Below are positions 28,549 through 37,467 of a stretch of DNA of 64,000 nt, in pieces; the first letter of the stretch is position 1, and each line of letters starts with the position of its first letter. The DNA comes from Ahrensia kielensis DSM 5890. Lineage in GTDB: Bacteria; Pseudomonadota; Alphaproteobacteria; Rhizobiales; Rhizobiaceae. Position numbers and translations under genes: made by a program. The notes under the pieces were generated by a model. The model searched no databases, was not told the DNA's origin, and was given only the letters and a program-made list of their open reading frames with translations. Location: the NCBI RefSeq assembly GCF_000374465.1, contig NZ_KB894529.1, positions 124,001 to 188,000 on the forward strand, read 5' to 3'.

Positions 28549-29565
28549 TTAAGACAGGCAGCGCTGGAACGAGCCTGTTAGTTTGGTCAATAATTCACCG
28601 TACAACCCAGCACCTGTTTCAATTCCCGCACCAAGAGGGTCAAGCACCTCCACTTTTACGTTCAGCCCTTCAGTTAGTGTCGCGGTAACATCACTGTTAA
28701 ATTGTGTTTCGCTAAAAATGCAGGCCACATCTTCAGTTTTAAGTACTTCCCTTAGTGATTTCATGCGCGCTGCACTTGCTGAAACTTCAGGATTATCAAG
28801 CAACAATCCCTTCGCATTCAATCCAAACCGCGCTTCAAAATATTGGGTACCATCATGAAATGCGACAAAAGCTTTCTTCCCAACATTTGATAGTTCTGTC
28901 GATATTTTTGTTTCCAAGCTTTGTAGTCCACTTAATGCATTATGGGCATTAGTACGGTACGTCTCTGCATTTTCCGGATCAATACTTTCGAGTTGCATTG
29001 CGATTGCTTCCAACATTACAGCTGCGTTACGCGGGTCTAACCAAATATGAGGATCATGATCCCCGACATGCGTATGACCGTGGTGGCCGTGCTCGGCTTC
29101 CTGCTTATCCTTGTGATCATGCTCACCTTCATGCTTGTCATCATCTTCGTGCTCATGAGCATCTTTATGACCACCTGCCGCTGCGATTTTTTCTCCATCA
29201 CGGAAATCAAGCAGTGTCAGCCCTTTCGCATCAATCAGCGCAACATTAGTGTCTTTGCTATCAAGCGCCTCTAATGGTTTGGCAAGAAAGGCTTCAAGCG
29301 CAGGCCCGACCCAGAAAACGACATCAGCATTTTGGATCGCCCGCGCATCAGATGGCTTCAATGAGAAATCATGAGGAGAGACATTTGCATTGAGCAAAAG
29401 CTCAGGCTCAGCAACATCCCCCATTACCATCGACACCAAGCTATGAATCGGCGCTATCGACGCCACCACTTTTGGCGCAGCGTTTGCAGAAGTGCAAAGC
29501 AAGAGTGTACTCATTGCTAGAAAAATGCTGGAACGTGCCTTGGTGGCGGACAAAATATTGTACAT
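28549..29565 (-). CDS. znuA: Zinc ABC transporter substrate-binding protein ZnuA
   Basis: Periplasmic Zn(II) receptor for ZnuBC, 338 aa. A signal peptide (SIFLAMSTLLLCTSANAA) is followed by a cluster A-I SBP fold with metal-binding histidines in SIAPIHSLVSMVMG, VSPHDF, HDPHIWLDPRN and AFHDGTQYFEARFG. A long His/Asp/Glu-rich loop (about residues 135-175) precedes the second metal His and is typical of ZnuA rather than manganese receptors. Divergent from znuC, with a Zur box 32 bp upstream of its start. Confidence 0.96.
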   Translation of the reverse strand: MYNILSATKARSSIFLAMSTLLLCTSANAAPKVVASIAPIHSLVSMVMGDVAEPELLLNANVSPHDFSLKPSDARAIQNADVVFWVGPALEAFLAKPLEALDSKDTNVALIDAKGLTLLDFRDGEKIAAAGGHKDAHEHEDDDKHEGEHDHKDKQEAEHGHHGHTHVGDHDPHIWLDPRNAAVMLEAIAMQLESIDPENAETYRTNAHNALSGLQSLETKISTELSNVGKKAFVAFHDGTQYFEARFGLNAKGLLLDNPEVSASAARMKSLREVLKTEDVACIFSETQFNSDVTATLTEGLNVKVEVLDPLGAGIETGAGLYGELLTKLTGSFQRCLS

Positions 29566-29596
29566 TTCTTCACTTTCATGTCGACGATTGTTGATA

Positions 29597-29611
29597 TGTT
29601 ATACTATAACA
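29597..29611. promoter_or_regulatory. Zur box controlling znuA and znuCB-zur
   Basis: TGTTATA-C-TATAACA is a perfect 15-bp palindrome matching the core of the proteobacterial Zur consensus (GTTATA..TATAAC). It lies midway in the znuA/znuC divergent region, 32 bp from the znuA start and 57 bp from znuC, and so can control both. Zur itself is encoded in the right-hand operon. Confidence 0.88.
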
Positions 29612-29667
29612 CTTACGTAAAATATATTTTCAGTGCAAGTGTTTTTAGAACTAATTTGAGGTTTTCC

Positions 29668-30498
29668 ATGAGCGACCCACTCGTTACACTTAAAGGCGCA
29701 GGCGTCTATCGCGATAAGCGCTGGCTTGTCAGAGGTGTTGACCTTGAGGTCGCCCGCGGCGAGATCGTTACAATGATTGGACCGAATGGATCGGGAAAAT
29801 CAACGACGGCAAAAATGGCACTGTCTATTATAAAGCCTGACGAAGGAACTGTTCAACGATCTGACAATTTAAAGGTCAGTTATGTTCCACAGAAGCTATC
29901 TATCGATTGGACAATGCCGCTTGATGTGCGCCGCTTCATGAACCTGACGAGTAAATTGACAGCAGTACAGATTGACGATGCGCTGACCGCAACAGGTGCG
30001 GCACACTTAAAAAAAGCAGAAGTCCGCAGTCTATCAGGCGGTGAGTTTCAGCGGGTCATGCTTGCTCGCGCTATGGCACGCCGCCCTGATTTACTTGTGC
30101 TAGACGAGCCTGTGCAAGGCGTGGACTTTGCCGGTGAAATCTCAATCTACGATTTAATAAAGACCATTCGAGATGATCTTGGATGCGGCATTTTATTAAT
30201 TTCGCACGACCTGCATATTGTTATGGCTGCGACTGACAAAGTTATCTGTCTTAATGGACATGTATGTTGCCAAGGCACGCCCACAAACGTTGCGAAAAGT
30301 GAGGCCTATAAGAACCTGTTCGGTCCCCGCAATGATTCAACTTTGGCGGTTTATCAACATCGCCATGACCACGACCATTTGCCTGATGGGCGTGTCAGAC
30401 ATGCGGATGGAACAGTAACCGATCATTGTCACAGCGACGATGGTCACCATGATGATAAGCCATCTCACAACCATTTAAATGAGCAAAACCATGCTTGA
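29668..30498 (+). CDS. znuC: Zinc ABC transporter ATPase ZnuC
   Basis: Cytoplasmic ATPase of the zinc importer, 276 aa. Walker A GPNGSGKSTT, signature SLSGGEFQRVMLARAMA, Walker B LLVLDEPVQGVD and the switch His in LLISHDLHIV are all present. The C-terminus carries a His/Asp-rich tail (HRHDHDHLPDG, HCHSDDGHHDD) typical of ZnuC in this group. The ATG at 29668 has TGAGG six bases upstream; the open frame upstream of it runs across the Zur box and was rejected. Overlaps znuB. Confidence 0.96.
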   Translation: MSDPLVTLKGAGVYRDKRWLVRGVDLEVARGEIVTMIGPNGSGKSTTAKMALSIIKPDEGTVQRSDNLKVSYVPQKLSIDWTMPLDVRRFMNLTSKLTAVQIDDALTATGAAHLKKAEVRSLSGGEFQRVMLARAMARRPDLLVLDEPVQGVDFAGEISIYDLIKTIRDDLGCGILLISHDLHIVMAATDKVICLNGHVCCQGTPTNVAKSEAYKNLFGPRNDSTLAVYQHRHDHDHLPDGRVRHADGTVTDHCHSDDGHHDDKPSHNHLNEQNHA

Positions 30499-31297
30499 TG
30501 ATTTTATTGCTCGCGCTCTTTTAGCCGGTATTGGCTTGGCCATTATTGCTGGCCCACTTGGCTGCTTTATCATATGGCGCCGTATGGCTTATTTCGGCGA
30601 TACACTTGCTCATTCAGCACTGTTGGGTGTTGTTGCGGGTATTTTTTTAGATATCAACATTACCCTTACCGTGTTTGTTGTTTCTGCTGTCATTTCCTGC
30701 GTGATGATTTTATTGCGGCGCAGCGGCACGCTTTCATCCGATGCTATATTGGGCCTGCTATCTCACTCAGGATTAGCACTTGGCCTTGTGGCCATAAGCT
30801 TTCTTAGCCAATCCAATGTTAGCTTAAACAGCCTTTTGTTTGGAGACATTTTGGGTGTCTCCAAACAAGATGTCGGTGTCATTTATATTGGCGGCACTGT
30901 TTTATTGATCATTCTTGTTCTGATTTGGCGGCCTCTGTTTGCAGCAACGGTTAGCCAGGAACTAAGCGAAGCAGAAATGAAAAATCCGAACCTACCGGAA
31001 ATTATATTCATGCTGTTGATGGCTGCGGTGATTGCCCTTGCGATGAAGATTGTCGGCGTATTGCTAATCACAGCAATGTTGATTGTACCGGCAGCTACCG
31101 CGCGCAAATTTTCTGTAGCTCCTGAGCAGATGGTCGTGATATCGATATTAATAGGCATCCTATCCGTGAGCGGCGGCGTCGCAGGATCTTTGCAGTTTGA
31201 CACGCCTACCGCGCCGACAATTGTTGTGACATCACTTATCCTCTTCATTTTAAGCCGTTTGTCGCCTCGGATGTTACGTGCAAGAAGGAACAAGTAA
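30491..31297 (+). CDS. znuB: Zinc ABC transporter permease ZnuB
   Basis: Inner-membrane permease of the ABC-3 family, about 268 aa with eight or so hydrophobic segments. GPLGCFIIWRRMAYFGDTLAHSALLG is the conserved N-terminal block (GDTLAHSALLG) of the family; later MKIVGVLLITAMLIVPAATA is also diagnostic. The ATG at 30491 overlaps the znuC stop by eight bases (ATGCTTGA); an upstream ATG at 30479 is possible. Its TAA stop shares a base with the zur start. Confidence 0.95.
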   Translation: MLDDFIARALLAGIGLAIIAGPLGCFIIWRRMAYFGDTLAHSALLGVVAGIFLDINITLTVFVVSAVISCVMILLRRSGTLSSDAILGLLSHSGLALGLVAISFLSQSNVSLNSLLFGDILGVSKQDVGVIYIGGTVLLIILVLIWRPLFAATVSQELSEAEMKNPNLPEIIFMLLMAAVIALAMKIVGVLLITAMLIVPAATARKFSVAPEQMVVISILIGILSVSGGVAGSLQFDTPTAPTIVVTSLILFILSRLSPRMLRARRNK

Positions 31298-31698
31298 TGG
31301 GCACACCGCAAAAACTGACCAAAAACCAATCGCTTGTATTGGGCATACTCGATAAGTCAGAGCAGCCGCTGAGCGCCTATACAATTTTGGATTCGCTTCG
31401 CAGTGAAGGTTTGCGCGCACCTTTACAGGTTTATCGTGCATTAGATGCTCTGGTTTCGCTTGGTAACGTGCACCGATTGGAAAGCTTGAACGCTTTTGTT
31501 GCTTGCTCGCATGCAGGCTGTTCATCGCATAGCTCTGCAACTTTCATCATATGCAAGAATTGCGGAATCGTAGCGGAAATTTACGACGACACGATTACAT
31601 CTCAACTGCGCCAAGTTGCAGAACGCGAAGCGTTTAGCCTGCAAAAAACCACAGTGGAACTGCATGGCATTTGCGCGTCATGCCAAAACAACGCATAG
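31297..31698 (+). CDS. zur: Zinc uptake regulator Zur (Fur family)
   Basis: Fur-family repressor, 133 aa. Winged helix at about residues 1-75 (YTILDSLRSEGLRAPLQVYR, ALDALVSLGNVHRLES) and a dimerisation domain with structural-zinc cysteines in FIICKNCGIV and GICASCQNN. The C-x2-C pairs and the znu context support Zur over Fur. It is cotranscribed with znuCB by a TAATG junction, so it probably represses its own synthesis through the Zur box at 29597. Confidence 0.94.
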   Translation: MGTPQKLTKNQSLVLGILDKSEQPLSAYTILDSLRSEGLRAPLQVYRALDALVSLGNVHRLESLNAFVACSHAGCSSHSSATFIICKNCGIVAEIYDDTITSQLRQVAEREAFSLQKTTVELHGICASCQNNA

Positions 31699-33226: not shown

Positions 33227-33276
33227 GATTGATTGGGGCATCGTTCCCATTCAATATAGCTGCGGGAGGAATTTAC

Positions 33277-34440
33277 ATGGCTTCAATCACGGGCTGGGCA
33301 CACACACCCTTTGGCAAACTGACAGATAAAACCGTCGAAGCGCTCATTGGCGATATTGCCAATGAGACGATTGAGAAGGCTGGTCTGTCGGTAGATGAAA
33401 TAGATGCGGTTTGTTTAGGCACATTTAATGCAGGCCTTGTGCGCCAAGATTTTACCGGAAGTTTAGTTTCGTCTGCCGTGCCTGAACTGCGCCACGTTCC
33501 TGCAACCCGTTATGAAAATGCCTGTGCGACTGGTAGTGCGGCCATTCATGGAGCACTTGATAGAATTGCTGCTGGCAAAGCGCGCCATGTGCTGGTGATC
33601 GGCGTTGAAAAGATGACGGCGCTACCAACAGCAGATGTTGGCAATGTGTTGCTTAAAGCTTCTTATGTTGAAGAAGAAGCTGATATTGATGCAGGGTTTG
33701 CAGGCATTTTTGGGCGCATAACATCAGCTTACTTCCAGAAATTCGGCGACCAGAGTGATGCACTTGCGCATATCGCGGCGAAAAATCACGCCAATGGTAC
33801 GCTCAATCCGCTTGCACATATGCAAAAGGATTTTGGCTTTGAGTTTTGCAACCAAATCTCAGACAAAAATCCATATGTAGCTGGGCCGCTTCGGCGTACC
33901 GATTGCTCGCTCATTTCTGATGGGGCAGCGGCGCTGATCATTTCACACGACAAAGCAGCCGAAGCGATGGAGCACGCTGTGTCGTTTCGCGCTGCTGAAC
34001 AGGTCAATGATTATCTGGCCCTATCAAAGAAAGACCCCACTGAGTTTTTAGGGGCGCGCATGTCTTGGAATAAAGCGTTAGAAAGCGCTGGTTTAACGCT
34101 TGATGATTTAAGCTTTGCAGAAGTTCATGACTGCTTCACCATTGCAGAACTCATTGAATATGAAATTATGGGCCTTGCGAAGCGCGGCCAAGGTGGTGAC
34201 ATCGCGCGTTCTGGCGAGACTGCTATCGGTGGTCGCCTGCCTGTGAACCCTTCGGGCGGTCTTAAAGCAAAAGGCCATCCCGTTGGTGCGACGGGTGTTT
34301 CCATGCATGTGATGGCCACCAAACAATTGATGGGCGAAATTGCTGGTGCGAAAGTAAAAGACGCAAAACTGGCGGCAATATTCAATATGGGCGGCACAGC
34401 AGCTGCGAACTATACCAGCATTTTAGAGCGCCTACGATGA
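33277..34440 (+). CDS. Thiolase-family acetyl-CoA acetyltransferase (SCP2-type)
   Basis: 387 aa. The nucleophile Cys lies in YENACATGSAAIHGAL (about residue 85). The C-terminal catalytic elements are AEVHDCFTIAELIEYE, NPSGGLKAKGHPVGATG (His/Cys region) and NMGGTAAANYTSIL. HDCF in place of the NEAFA of degradative thiolases places it in the SCP2-thiolase-like group, whose bacterial members are mostly uncharacterised. A good GGGAGG Shine-Dalgarno fixes the ATG at 33277. First gene of a three-gene operon with a CoA ligase (ATGA overlap) and a PPC-domain protein. No acyl-CoA dehydrogenase or hydratase is present, so it is not an ordinary beta-oxidation operon. Confidence 0.88.
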   Translation: MASITGWAHTPFGKLTDKTVEALIGDIANETIEKAGLSVDEIDAVCLGTFNAGLVRQDFTGSLVSSAVPELRHVPATRYENACATGSAAIHGALDRIAAGKARHVLVIGVEKMTALPTADVGNVLLKASYVEEEADIDAGFAGIFGRITSAYFQKFGDQSDALAHIAAKNHANGTLNPLAHMQKDFGFEFCNQISDKNPYVAGPLRRTDCSLISDGAAALIISHDKAAEAMEHAVSFRAAEQVNDYLALSKKDPTEFLGARMSWNKALESAGLTLDDLSFAEVHDCFTIAELIEYEIMGLAKRGQGGDIARSGETAIGGRLPVNPSGGLKAKGHPVGATGVSMHVMATKQLMGEIAGAKVKDAKLAAIFNMGGTAAANYTSILERLR

Positions 34441-36026
34441 GCGCTGGTCTTAACATTGAGCGCCAGACAAATGCCGTTATGAATATCGGCCATTTTTTGA
34501 CGCAAGCTTCACGCCGTTTGAAAGATGTCCCTGCACTCATTCGCGGCGATGACATTAGAAGCTGGGAAGCGATGAATGCCCGCGTTGATGCAATTGCGCA
34601 TGCACTCAAACACATAGACGTTCAAAAGGGCGACCGCGTTCTTCTGCATTCGAGCAACTGCCTTGATATGGCAGAAGCGATGTATGCAATATTCAAAACA
34701 GGCGCCGTATTGGTGCCAACGAATTTTCGTTTAAACCCCGCAGAGATCGCTCAAATGGCGGAGATTTCAGGCGCGACATACTTCATTGGCAATGCTGATT
34801 TTCCTGATCATATAACAGCGCTTTCTCATTTGGCGCAGATGAAGAGCAAGCCGATTATCATCGGAGAGAATTACGAAGAACTGATCGCTGCGAATATGAA
34901 ACACGGCGCATTTAATGAAGCCCATGTTGAGCATAATGATCCGGCTTGGTTCTTCTTTACTTCTGGCACGACGGGAACGCCTAAATGCGCAGCGCTAACA
35001 CATGGCCAGCTTGGGTTTGTGCTGACTAATCATGCGGCAGATTTAATGCCCGGCTTATCGCCGCAAGATGCATCGCTGGTTGTTGCCCCACTTTCGCATG
35101 GCGCTGGATTACACTTTTTTGTGCAAGTCTCGCGTGGCGCAAAAACAGTTTTAACCAAGATTGACGGGCTTGATCCGCACGAATTATGGCAACTCGTTGA
35201 GAAGCACAAAATCACCAATATGTTCACAGTTCCAACAATCGTGAAAAGATTGGTCGAACACCCAAGTGTTGATCTGTTTGATCATAGCAGCCTCAAACAT
35301 GTGATTTATGCTGGTGCACCCATGTATCGCGCGGATCAAAAAACAGCGCTCGAAAAACTCGGACCAGTTCTTGTTCAGTATTTTGGGCTCGGCGAAGTGA
35401 CTGGCGCTATCACTGTGCTACCCGCAAATGAACATTTCCTTGATGACGCACAGATGCGCATCGGCACATGCGGCTATGCCCGTACAGGCATGCAGATCGC
35501 CATTTTAAACGATAGCGCAACTGAATTGCCGCTGGGTGAAACTGGCGCTATTGGCGTGCGCGGCCCTGCTGTATTCTCTGGTTATTACAACAATCCAAAA
35601 GCGAATGCTGAAAGCTTTCAAAACGGTTGGTTTTTAACAGGCGACATTGGGCATATGGATGACGCTGGTTATGTTTATCTTACCGGCCGAAAATCTGACA
35701 TGTATATTTCAGGCGGCTCAAATATTTACCCAAGAGAAATTGAAGAAAAGCTTCTGGAACATCCAGCCATTGCGGAAATCGCGATTGTTGGCGTACCCGA
35801 TGCAAACTGGGGCGAAGTCGGTGCGGCGGTCATCGCTTTATCTAACGGCGCGGTATTAGATGAAACAGAACTGCGTGCATGGTTTGCCGATAAGGTTGCA
35901 CGGTATAAGCAGCCAAAACTTATCGTGTTTCGCGATGAATTACCAAAATCGAGCTATGGCAAAGTCGAGAAACGCCGCGTTCGAGAATTGCTTTTGGCCG
36001 ATGGTTTGATTGAGGAAATTCAGTAA
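34437..36026 (+). CDS. AMP-dependent acyl-CoA synthetase/ligase
   Basis: ANL-superfamily enzyme, 529 aa, forming an acyl-CoA through an acyl-AMP intermediate. Core motifs: FFFTSGTTGTPKCAALTHGQ (P-loop, about 163-182), VQYFGLGEVTGAITVL, GWFLTGDIGHMDDAGYVYLT, GRKSDMYISGGSNIYPREIE and the catalytic Lys in LPKSSYGKVEKR near the C-terminus. The length and motifs fit medium-chain or aromatic acid ligases; the substrate cannot be read from sequence. Coupled to the thiolase by an ATGA overlap and to the PPC gene by TAATG. Confidence 0.9.
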   Translation: MSAGLNIERQTNAVMNIGHFLTQASRRLKDVPALIRGDDIRSWEAMNARVDAIAHALKHIDVQKGDRVLLHSSNCLDMAEAMYAIFKTGAVLVPTNFRLNPAEIAQMAEISGATYFIGNADFPDHITALSHLAQMKSKPIIIGENYEELIAANMKHGAFNEAHVEHNDPAWFFFTSGTTGTPKCAALTHGQLGFVLTNHAADLMPGLSPQDASLVVAPLSHGAGLHFFVQVSRGAKTVLTKIDGLDPHELWQLVEKHKITNMFTVPTIVKRLVEHPSVDLFDHSSLKHVIYAGAPMYRADQKTALEKLGPVLVQYFGLGEVTGAITVLPANEHFLDDAQMRIGTCGYARTGMQIAILNDSATELPLGETGAIGVRGPAVFSGYYNNPKANAESFQNGWFLTGDIGHMDDAGYVYLTGRKSDMYISGGSNIYPREIEEKLLEHPAIAEIAIVGVPDANWGEVGAAVIALSNGAVLDETELRAWFADKVARYKQPKLIVFRDELPKSSYGKVEKRRVRELLLADGLIEEIQ

Positions 36027-36988
36027 TGCCAGCAGTGAAAATGGCACGCGCTGACTTACCAAAAGCGTACCACATGAAGCACCCGGGACCGCTTAATTCA
36101 ACACGCATAGACTATGTTGAAATACCCGAAGTTGTTTCCGATCATGTGATCTTGCCAGTAGGCAAAAACCTGCATGATGCTGTCATCGAAGCTGCCAAAA
36201 ATCTCGGCGGCGAGTGCGGAACGGCCTCTATCAATGGCGGAGAATTTTCTAAAACCCGTTTTACAACGGGCGGGCCAGCACGCGAGGGTAAATCAGCAAA
36301 TTACACCTTTATTCGTGACCTAGCGGACAAGCAAATTTTGATGGGCACTTGTTCATTTGGCTTTGCTGAAGACGCGCCGCATTTTGTTCATTGCCATGCG
36401 CGTTTTGTGAGCAGCAACCAGTCAACAGAAATGGGTGGTCATTTATTTGCGCCAGATTGCATCATCAGCGAGCCGATTAGCGCGCAAATGAATGTTTTTA
36501 TTGGTGCAAGCATTACAAAGCGCGCAAGCGAAGAAACGCTTCATGCCATTTTTGAAATTGATAAGCATGCCCCGCCGCAGATTAGCGACGAATTCGGCCG
36601 CGAATATTTCATTCGGGTTCATCCCAATGAGGATTTGCCCATCGCGCTTGAAAACTTTTGCAAAGAACACGGCATTGAAAATGCAATCATTGGCGCGTCT
36701 CTTGGCAGTCTTAATGCACCAGCACTCAGCATGCGCGGTGACATTCAAAAAGTTTCAAGTGTCGGAACCGAAGCTATTTCTTTTAACGGAGAAGTTATGC
36801 TGAATGAAAACGGCAAGCATACAGCCTCCATTCTAACGAACCTCGTCGATGAAGCAGGCACTGAATTTTGTGGCTATCTGATTAAGGGCCATGCGCCGAT
36901 ATGCATCACAGCCGAAATATATTTGATGGAAGTCAAAGACCCATCGGTATTAGCAACCATGCGCCAAGTCCGCGACGCAAGTTACTAG
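36026..36988 (+). CDS. Tandem PPC/DUF296 domain protein
   Basis: 320 aa containing two copies of the PPC (DUF296, PCC) fold. Copy 1 (about 40-165) runs from LPVGKNLHDAVIEAAKNLGG to HFVHCHARF and MGGHLFAPDC; copy 2 (about 195-315) from VHPNEDLPIALENFCKEHG through IGASLGSL to EFCGYLIKGHAPICITAEIY. PPC domains form trimers and, in plants, sit on AT-hook DNA-binding proteins; bacterial ones lack AT-hooks and have no known function. No AT-hook, signal peptide or membrane segment is seen here. The start is coupled to the ligase, implying a shared task, perhaps an enzyme or acyl-CoA/metal-binding accessory role. Domain calls are by pattern reading. Confidence 0.72.
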   Translation: MPAVKMARADLPKAYHMKHPGPLNSTRIDYVEIPEVVSDHVILPVGKNLHDAVIEAAKNLGGECGTASINGGEFSKTRFTTGGPAREGKSANYTFIRDLADKQILMGTCSFGFAEDAPHFVHCHARFVSSNQSTEMGGHLFAPDCIISEPISAQMNVFIGASITKRASEETLHAIFEIDKHAPPQISDEFGREYFIRVHPNEDLPIALENFCKEHGIENAIIGASLGSLNAPALSMRGDIQKVSSVGTEAISFNGEVMLNENGKHTASILTNLVDEAGTEFCGYLIKGHAPICITAEIYLMEVKDPSVLATMRQVRDASY

Positions 36989-36997
36989 CTTTTATTG

Positions 36998-37339
36998 TCA
37001 GCCCTTGGCTATGCCATAGAGGTTGGTTGAACGGGCACCAGATCGACAATAGGCATAGATAGGACGCTCCAAATCATCGAGCGCGGTGCGTGTGTCTTCA
37101 ATATTCTCCGGTGTCATTCCCATTTTTGTCACGGGAATATAACGGATAGCTAAACCTGCTTCATTAGCCGCGGCTTCAATGAGTTCAAAATTCGGTTGAT
37201 CCGCTGATTCTCCATCCGGTCTATTGCAGATGATAGATTTATATCCAGCAGCTTTAATGTCAGCGACTTGTTCAGGTGTAATTTGCCCTGAAACAGCAAC
37301 TTCATCATCAATTTTACGGTAATCATCAGGCAAATTCAT
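36998..37339 (-). CDS. TIGR01244/DUF442 family protein, phosphatase/sulfurtransferase-like
   Basis: 113 aa, cytoplasmic. The fold is that of small Cys-based phosphatases: YRKIDDEVAVSGQITPEQV, SIICNRPDGE and the loop YCRSGARSTNLYG with a CRSG(A/T)RS nucleophile. This domain also occurs fused to beta-lactamase-like (persulfide dioxygenase/BLH) proteins, which links it to sulfide metabolism in some bacteria; here it stands alone. The ATG at 37339 was chosen; 37354 is another option and the frame is open to 37408. Converges on the PPC gene with nine bases between stops. Confidence 0.8.
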   Translation of the reverse strand: MNLPDDYRKIDDEVAVSGQITPEQVADIKAAGYKSIICNRPDGESADQPNFELIEAAANEAGLAIRYIPVTKMGMTPENIEDTRTALDDLERPIYAYCRSGARSTNLYGIAKG

Positions 37340-37467
37340 AATTAAATCCAACATTGTTCTTGAACGCACAATAATATGCACTTGGCTTGCAATCAACGTT
37401 TTTAGCAAGTGGTTGATATCATCATACAGCTGTTTAAGCGCTAATCAATTTGGCCTATATAAGCGCT

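What the first reader, a model, noticed from the sequence alone, without database searches (positions are those of the whole stretch)
33277..36988. Coupled operon of SCP2-type thiolase, acyl-CoA ligase and a tandem PPC/DUF296 protein
Three genes overlap stop-to-start (ATGA, then TAATG), so they should act in stoichiometric concert. A thiolase and a CoA ligase without dehydrogenase or hydratase genes do not make a known catabolic route, and the third protein carries two PPC/DUF296 domains in one chain with no AT-hook. Bacterial PPC proteins have no known function. The first copy keeps a His cluster (HFVHCHARF) and GGHL, which could bind a metal or ligand; the second copy has lost the His cluster. 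One working idea is a PPC-assisted condensation or cleavage of an unusual acyl-CoA; another is a regulatory subunit. No component is proven.
Basis: partly seen in the sequence, partly recalled or inferred. Interest (0 to 1): 0.6.

Follow-up and report, generated by a model that had tools for sequence, protein, structure and literature searches.

The report
Paired PPC protein in CoA-ligase/thiolase operon
In a marine bacterium and many relatives, a two-domain protein of unknown role (PPC/DUF296) travels with a CoA ligase, and often with a thiolase, a transporter and dehydrogenases, which points to a role in breaking down a small acid and makes that role testable.

Summary
In detail: thiolase (33277-34440), acyl-CoA ligase (34437-36026) and tandem PPC protein (36026-36988) overlap in an Ahrensia genome. 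The link is real. In 397 genomes of the order, all 70 with the PPC pair also have this ligase (84 of 397 have it); in 67 of 70 they lie within 1 kb. The thiolase is at 63 of 115 loci, and elsewhere in 39 of 40 searched genomes lacking it there. Other operons add TRAP, IclR and SDR genes, so the missing dehydrogenase is local. The PPC protein is an old pair of unlike domains: domain 1 alone keeps an HxH...GH triad (116 of 116 rows). The pair is two genes at 31 loci and was fused at least twice; Ahrensia's fusion is separate (tree 100/100; AU p = 0.02). Best guess: a metal-dependent enzyme working with the ligase on a small, perhaps acetolactate-like, acid. Chemistry and substrate are unproven, both structure predictions failed, and one bacterial DUF296 protein with a like triad (LmiA) is a published DNA-binding regulator, so a regulatory role stays open.

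The parts
33264..33270 (+). Shine-Dalgarno-like GGGAGGA, 6 bases before the thiolase ATG
   Evidence: sequence
33277..34440 (+). SCP2-type thiolase (PRK07516), 387 aa; Cys83, HDCF Cys286 and GHP His334 present
34437..36026 (+). AMP-forming acyl-CoA ligase (PRK07470), 529 aa; TSGTTGTPK and PKSSYGK motifs present; 4-base overlap with the thiolase
36026..36988 (+). tandem PPC/DUF296 (PF03479) protein, 320 aa; its ATG shares one base with the ligase stop
36071..36583 (+). PPC domain 1 (about residues 16-186): carries the histidine triad; equivalent of the upstream gene where the pair is split
36389..36442 (+). candidate metal triad H122, H124 (36389-36397) and H139 (36440-36442), H-x-H-x14-H ending GGH; triad in 85 of 85 fused rows and 31 of 31 split first genes
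36584..36940 (+). PPC domain 2 (about residues 187-305): PNED, LGSL, E249 and E297; no histidine triad; equivalent of the downstream gene where the pair is split

Best explanation
The three genes are the cytosolic core of a CoA-dependent catabolic module: the ligase makes an acyl-CoA, the tandem PPC protein acts directly with it, and the SCP2-type thiolase cleaves the resulting 3-oxoacyl-CoA. In other bacteria a TRAP transporter imports the acid, SDR dehydrogenases make the 3-oxo group, and an IclR protein regulates. The PPC protein is a fused pair of unlike subunits with one H-x-H...GH site (domain 1) completed by domain 2. I think it most likely a metal (probably zinc) enzyme acting on the ligase's substrate or product, by chemistry like that of acetolactate decarboxylase (enolisation, decarboxylation or ketol rearrangement), on a small branched hydroxy/oxo acid of the acetolactate type. 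Shown: gene identities, linkage, co-occurrence, histidine division, separate fusion. Inferred: metal, catalysis, step order. Weakly inferred: substrate and chemistry. My sub-estimates: catabolic module 0.9; enzyme or enzyme subunit with a metal site 0.5; acetolactate-like substrate or chemistry 0.2.
For: Ligase and PPC pair: 70 of 70 PPC genomes carry the ligase against 84 of 397 overall, and in 67 of 70 the two are within 1 kb; the 70 fall in 16 family codes. Loci: ligase within 1 kb on the same strand at 99 of 115, thiolase at 63, SDR at 60, TRAP at 54, IclR at 45. Thiolase elsewhere in 39 of 40 searched genomes lacking it at the locus, against 18 of 40 genomes in which no PPC pair was found. 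HDCF, GHP and NMGG in 63 of 63 thiolases. Triad: 85 of 85 fused rows, 31 of 31 split first genes, 0 of 31 split second genes; a published DUF296 protein has His 85, 87 and 101, said to appear to form a zinc site (PMC7667037), and 67 of 85 fused rows have the same H-x-H-x13-H spacing. Separate fusion: AU p = 0.0206, shared motifs. SBPs at 37 of 46 loci are 62-81% identical to PDB 4oan; a review lists 2-acetolactate among the new TRAP ligands of the EFI screen (PMC5812351, passages); that 4oan is the acetolactate structure is recalled. PTD012/C11orf54, with a 3-His zinc site and a structure related to acetolactate decarboxylase, is a beta-keto acid decarboxylase (PMC12435205, whole text).
Against: LmiA, a bacterial DUF296 protein with a like triad, binds a promoter (EMSA, ChIP, footprint) and activates transcription (PMC7667037, passages), so the triad does not prove catalysis. 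Profile comparison of domain 1 with acetolactate decarboxylase aligns the HxH...GGH stretch but is weak (E 0.04-0.06; 1 of 60 column shuffles scores as high), and domain 2 gives no signal (28 of 60). No usable structure. Ahrensia has no close TRAP partner (best SBP 32-34% identical), so the substrate clue comes from relatives; 9 of the 46 SBPs are only 26-30% identical to 4oan. 14 of 84 ligase genomes lack a PPC hit at the threshold; one keeps a short remnant. In a third Ahrensia genome (81% complete) PPC sits alone after selO while a thiolase-ligase pair is on another contig. Eight of 115 loci have neither ligase nor thiolase. Density-modelled SBP ligands can be look-alikes of the true substrate.
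Confidence: 0.35

Rival explanations
1. The PPC pair is a non-catalytic subunit of the ligase: it binds the ligase and gates or regulates it, as DUF35 proteins do for some thiolases (recalled).
For: Tightest link is to the ligase (99 of 115 within 1 kb; 70 of 70 co-occurrence); stop-start coupling; at loci such as L047 ligase and PPC are the only two genes of the searched set.
Against: An invariant histidine triad (116 of 116 rows) is more than a scaffold should need; 14 of 84 ligase genomes show no PPC hit.
Confidence: 0.22
2. The PPC pair is a transcription regulator of the operon, as LmiA, plant AHL proteins and the automatic 'DNA-binding protein' names suggest.
For: LmiA of E. coli O157:H7 has a DUF296 domain with a like triad and binds a promoter directly (PMC7667037, passages); annotation in plasmid records; plant AHL papers (listing).
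Against: No AT-hook; 45 of 115 loci have an IclR match of their own; the gene is fixed beside one ligase; LmiA-type proteins are single domains with the triad, whereas here one of two unlike domains lacks it.
Confidence: 0.17
3. The PPC pair is a hydrolase (lactonase or acyl-CoA thioesterase) that makes the ligase's substrate or recycles CoA.
For: 3-His metal-type motif; PTD012 hydrolyses p-nitrophenyl acetate (PMC12435205); an alpha/beta hydrolase gene sits in the Microvirga cluster.
Against: No direct evidence; that hydrolase matched at only 2 of 115 loci, one of them weakly.
Confidence: 0.13
4. The PPC pair is a partner of the thiolase (PPC-assisted cleavage or condensation), the first reader's idea and analogous to SCP2-thiolase/DUF35 complexes.
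For: Thiolase, ligase and PPC are consecutive at 52 of 115 loci and overlap in Ahrensia.
Against: At 41 of 115 loci the ligase and PPC have no thiolase in the fetched stretch; 20 stretches around thiolases elsewhere show no PPC match (13 of them from genomes that have the PPC pair, 7 from genomes without a hit); the thiolase occurs in 18 of 40 genomes where no PPC pair was found.
Confidence: 0.08

Closest known systems
PPC/PCC domain proteins (PF03479, DUF296), e.g. PH0802 (PDB 2dt4) and 2h6l
   Same: Domain 2 matches by sequence (E 1.4e-9); the His half of these chains aligns to domain 1.
   Different: These chains are single domains with both halves in one chain; here two unlike domains share them, and the operon is metabolic.
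LmiA of E. coli O157:H7 (DUF296 regulator, PMC7667037)
   Same: DUF296 domain with His 85, 87, 101 (H-x-H-x13-H), thought to bind zinc.
   Different: A single-domain regulator as described there; ours is a two-domain protein with the triad in one domain, tied to a CoA ligase. No direct sequence comparison was made.
Acetolactate decarboxylase (PF03306) and PTD012/C11orf54 (3-dehydro-L-gulonate decarboxylase)
   Same: HxH...GGH-type histidine motif; recalled: SCOP groups PPC, ALDC and PTD012 in one superfamily.
   Different: No Pfam match to PF03306; profile similarity is only motif-deep; in ALDC the motif lies in the second half of the chain, here in the first.
SCP2-type thiolases (PRK07516) and DUF35-dependent relatives such as BbsAB or Ltp2-ChsH2 (recalled)
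   Same: Family and catalytic motifs; a small partner protein in the operon.
   Different: No DUF35 gene between or beside the three window genes; the partner follows the ligase more than the thiolase.
PRK07470 acyl-CoA synthetase
   Same: Above the NCBIfam equivalog cut-off.
   Different: Substrate unknown; the PPC partnership did not turn up in my literature searches.

Membership tests
PPC/PCC domain (PF03479) | Pfam score over cut-off, domain 2 | tested here: met
   51.1 bits against 25
PPC/PCC domain (PF03479) | Pfam score over cut-off, domain 1 | tested here: inconclusive
   Not detected in the window protein; split homologue 22.7 bits, just under 25; two stretches in the Sinorhizobium tandem
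PPC/PCC domain (PF03479) | PPC fold in three dimensions | tested here: inconclusive
   Models at pLDDT 29.5 and 41.3 are unusable
Plant AHL transcription factors | AT-hook beside the PPC domain | tested here: not met
   No RGRP, GRP, RGR or RPR
LmiA-type DUF296 regulator | Specific DNA binding | not testable with these tools
   needs gel shift or ChIP with the purified protein
SCP2-type thiolase, PRK07516 | NCBIfam cut-off and Cys, HDCF, GHP motifs | tested here: met
   619 bits against 412; motifs present
Acyl-CoA synthetase PRK07470 | NCBIfam equivalog cut-off | tested here: met
   795.8 bits against 774
Acetolactate decarboxylase (PF03306) | Pfam match | tested here: not met
   No match in the window protein at E 0.1 or in the Sinorhizobium and Roseomonas homologues at E 10; none in the own genome
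Acetolactate decarboxylase (PF03306) | 3-His zinc triad H-x-H...H | tested here: inconclusive
   A motif of the same kind is invariant, but the alignment is not significant and no metal was measured
Acetolactate decarboxylase (PF03306) | Decarboxylase activity | not testable with these tools
   needs the purified protein

The most novel reading that the evidence does not exclude
The PPC pair is a new enzyme: a heteromeric metal-dependent relative of acetolactate decarboxylase that converts a branched 2-hydroxy-3-oxo acid, free or as CoA ester, between ligase and thiolase, in an undescribed pathway that turns acetolactate-like acids (for example 2,3-dihydroxy-2-methyl acids) into acetyl-CoA and a lactate unit. 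It would be the first enzymatic function of a bacterial PPC/DUF296 protein that I know of.
Probability: 0.18. Interest if true: 0.75.

Novelty: new variant of a known kind. Interest (0 to 1): 0.6.

Why it matters
PPC/DUF296 proteins occur in bacteria and archaea (control genomes) and in land plants (listings), mostly under DNA-binding names. As far as I know only a few, such as LmiA, have a tested role. A version tied to one ligase across 16 family codes of one order, with one invariant histidine triad and a candidate substrate class from its transporter, makes a metabolic role testable with a few gene removals and enzyme assays. If it is an enzyme, the DNA-binding labels given to many bacterial PPC proteins would need review.

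Tried and rejected
A PDB search with the latter gave nothing at E 0.001 or better, as expected of a poor model; no conclusion drawn. One viral-contig scan for more PPC rows: no relative. Profile comparison with acetolactate decarboxylase: weak. Own-genome search for the cluster's SBP: best 32-34% identity, no close match. Literature: DUF296 with thiolase, 0 papers; at least three of six cluster terms, 0; PF03479 with acyl-CoA, 0; DUF296 with bacterial, 33 papers, 30 listed. These cover one open-access library only. PMC12435205 was read whole; PMC5812351 and PMC7667037 in passages. Vetting 2015, the PTD012 structure paper and Malatesta 2025 were not held; what I say of them comes from the review, the commentary or recall. 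The first mapping script had empty window queries by a naming error; repeated. The gene picture lost genes to over-long ORFs and was replaced. Mirror-tree coevolution of ligase and PPC was not run.

Limits of the counts: the 115 loci were chosen by their PPC match; 12 are plasmid loci fetched from 42 records with matches, picked for variety; one duplicate (L132, same contig as L002) was dropped but is still (116 rows). Several loci are cut by contig ends (e.g. L061, L073, L117, L133). The 40 background genomes were taken from those listed as without a PPC match, not drawn at random. Genomes are related, so the p-value printed is not independent evidence. The AU test was made after shared motifs had made me suspect a separate fusion. 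The 39 of 40 covers genomes I named from the loci without a thiolase, not the plasmid records.

Full report
Observation. The window belongs to an Ahrensia species by inference: the one named relative found is A. marina (PPC 87% identical), whose contig has the length of the contig in same-genus genome G001. Active-site motifs of the window's thiolase and ligase are present, so both should be working enzymes.

Neighbourhoods. Of the 12 plasmid loci fetched, 11 have ligase and TRAP matches near the PPC gene; Skermanella (L027) has neither. One of the 11, Variovorax, is a betaproteobacterium. I then searched 385 genomes of the class, 397 of the order and 398 of the phylum with a profile of nine tandem proteins, fetched the neighbourhoods and mapped them by tblastn against reference proteins of the cluster. 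At 115 distinct loci: ligase on either strand 106, same strand 103, within 1 kb on the same strand 99; thiolase 63; SDR 60; TRAP 54; IclR 45; thiolase, ligase and PPC consecutive 52; neither ligase nor thiolase 8. Seventeen loci, Ahrensia's two among them, have matches to thiolase, ligase and PPC only.

Co-occurrence. In the 397 genomes of the order, 70 have the PPC pair (E 1e-12) and 84 the ligase (E 1e-150); all 70 are among the 84, and in 67 the two are within 1 kb; the other three are G501, G537 (about 7 kb) and G645 (another contig). The 70 genomes fall in 16 family codes. Of the 14 ligase genomes without a PPC hit, eight belong to one genus code and show the ligase alone, one (L149) keeps a short PPC remnant right behind the ligase, three have thiolase and ligase without PPC, and two (L147, and L148, which is cut by a contig end) have neither thiolase nor PPC in the stretch. 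The thiolase was found elsewhere in 39 of 40 searched genomes that lack it at the locus, in 14 of 14 ligase-only genomes, and in 18 of 40 genomes in which no PPC pair had been found. Thus ligase and PPC form the core, and the thiolase is a common but separable third.

Anatomy. Among 85 fused rows the triad H122, H124, H139 is invariant and occurs once per protein. Where the pair is two genes, the first has the triad in 31 of 31 and the second in 0 of 31. In solved single-domain PPC chains the first half aligns to our domain 2 and the histidine half to our domain 1 (2dt4, 2h6l, 3htn). So one ancestral site seems to be shared out between two unlike subunits (inference). On a tree of 116 rows the Ahrensia fusions (4 rows, two of them the same sequence) lie among the split pairs, next to L102 and L103 (100/98), outside the clade of the other 81 fusions (100/100). 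Holding all fusions together is rejected at p = 0.02, with the caution that the Ahrensia branch is long and its letter make-up unusual. Shared motifs (FTTG...ANYT.IRD and a SLGSLN stretch) agree. Two separate fusions of the same pair argue that the two subunits touch (inference).

Mechanism. The catabolic reading rests on the transporter, regulator, SDRs, ligase and thiolase. With a 3-oxo acid as substrate, ligase plus thiolase suffices, which would explain Ahrensia's short set; SDRs would extend it to 3-hydroxy acids. That is inference. The substrate clue is the TRAP solute-binding protein: at 37 of the 46 loci where one aligned over more than 200 residues it is 62-81% identical to PDB 4oan, and at 9 only 26-30% (53 loci have an SBP match). 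I recall 4oan as modelled with (S)-2-acetolactate; no call shows the entry's title, but a review lists 2-acetolactate among the new TRAP ligands of the EFI screen (PMC5812351, passages). The chemistry clue is the histidine motif, like that of acetolactate decarboxylase, and the recalled SCOP grouping of PPC, acetolactate decarboxylase and PTD012. The last is a 3-His zinc protein shown to be a beta-keto acid decarboxylase (commentary PMC12435205). Tested here, the sequence link is weak: E 0.06, 1 of 60 column shuffles as good, domain 2 none. The ALDC-like chemistry is therefore a hypothesis, not a finding.

Against. LmiA of E. coli O157:H7, a DUF296 protein with a like histidine triad thought to bind zinc, binds the LEE1 promoter and activates ler (PMC7667037, passages). 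So a PPC domain with this triad can be a regulator, and the regulator rival cannot be dismissed; what speaks against it here is the fixed place beside one ligase, the IclR genes at 45 of 115 loci, and the unlike second domain. A third Ahrensia genome (81% complete) has PPC alone between selO and mutL, with a thiolase-ligase pair on another contig. Both structure models failed. Ahrensia lacks a close TRAP partner. The rival that PPC only supports or gates the ligase also remains open.

Verdict. A real, conserved and, as far as my searches of one open-access library show, undescribed partnership between a PPC pair and a CoA ligase in catabolic operons: a new variant of known families, with a testable metabolic role.

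Noticed in passing
   Followed up: partly
L133 (G002) and L186: In a third Ahrensia genome the PPC gene follows selO directly (about 25 bases between the matches) and a thiolase-ligase pair is on another contig.
   Followed up: partly
L104, L106, L136, L139: Split PPC pairs without a ligase, thiolase or TRAP match nearby, in genomes that also have a fused copy; what they do is unknown.
   Followed up: no
window 28549-31698: Zinc-uptake-like set (ZnuA, ABC ATPase, ABC-3 permease, FUR-family regulator by Pfam) lies just upstream of the operon, with selO between.
   Followed up: no
window 36998-37408 (-): BLH_phosphatase-domain gene, convergent with the PPC gene, before mutL.
   Followed up: no
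L028:7918-8878: An Agrobacterium plasmid carries both the fused PPC gene and, convergent beside it, a split PPC pair.
   Followed up: no
L023:6034-6915: Alpha/beta hydrolase gene between SDR and PPC genes in the Microvirga cluster.
   Followed up: partly
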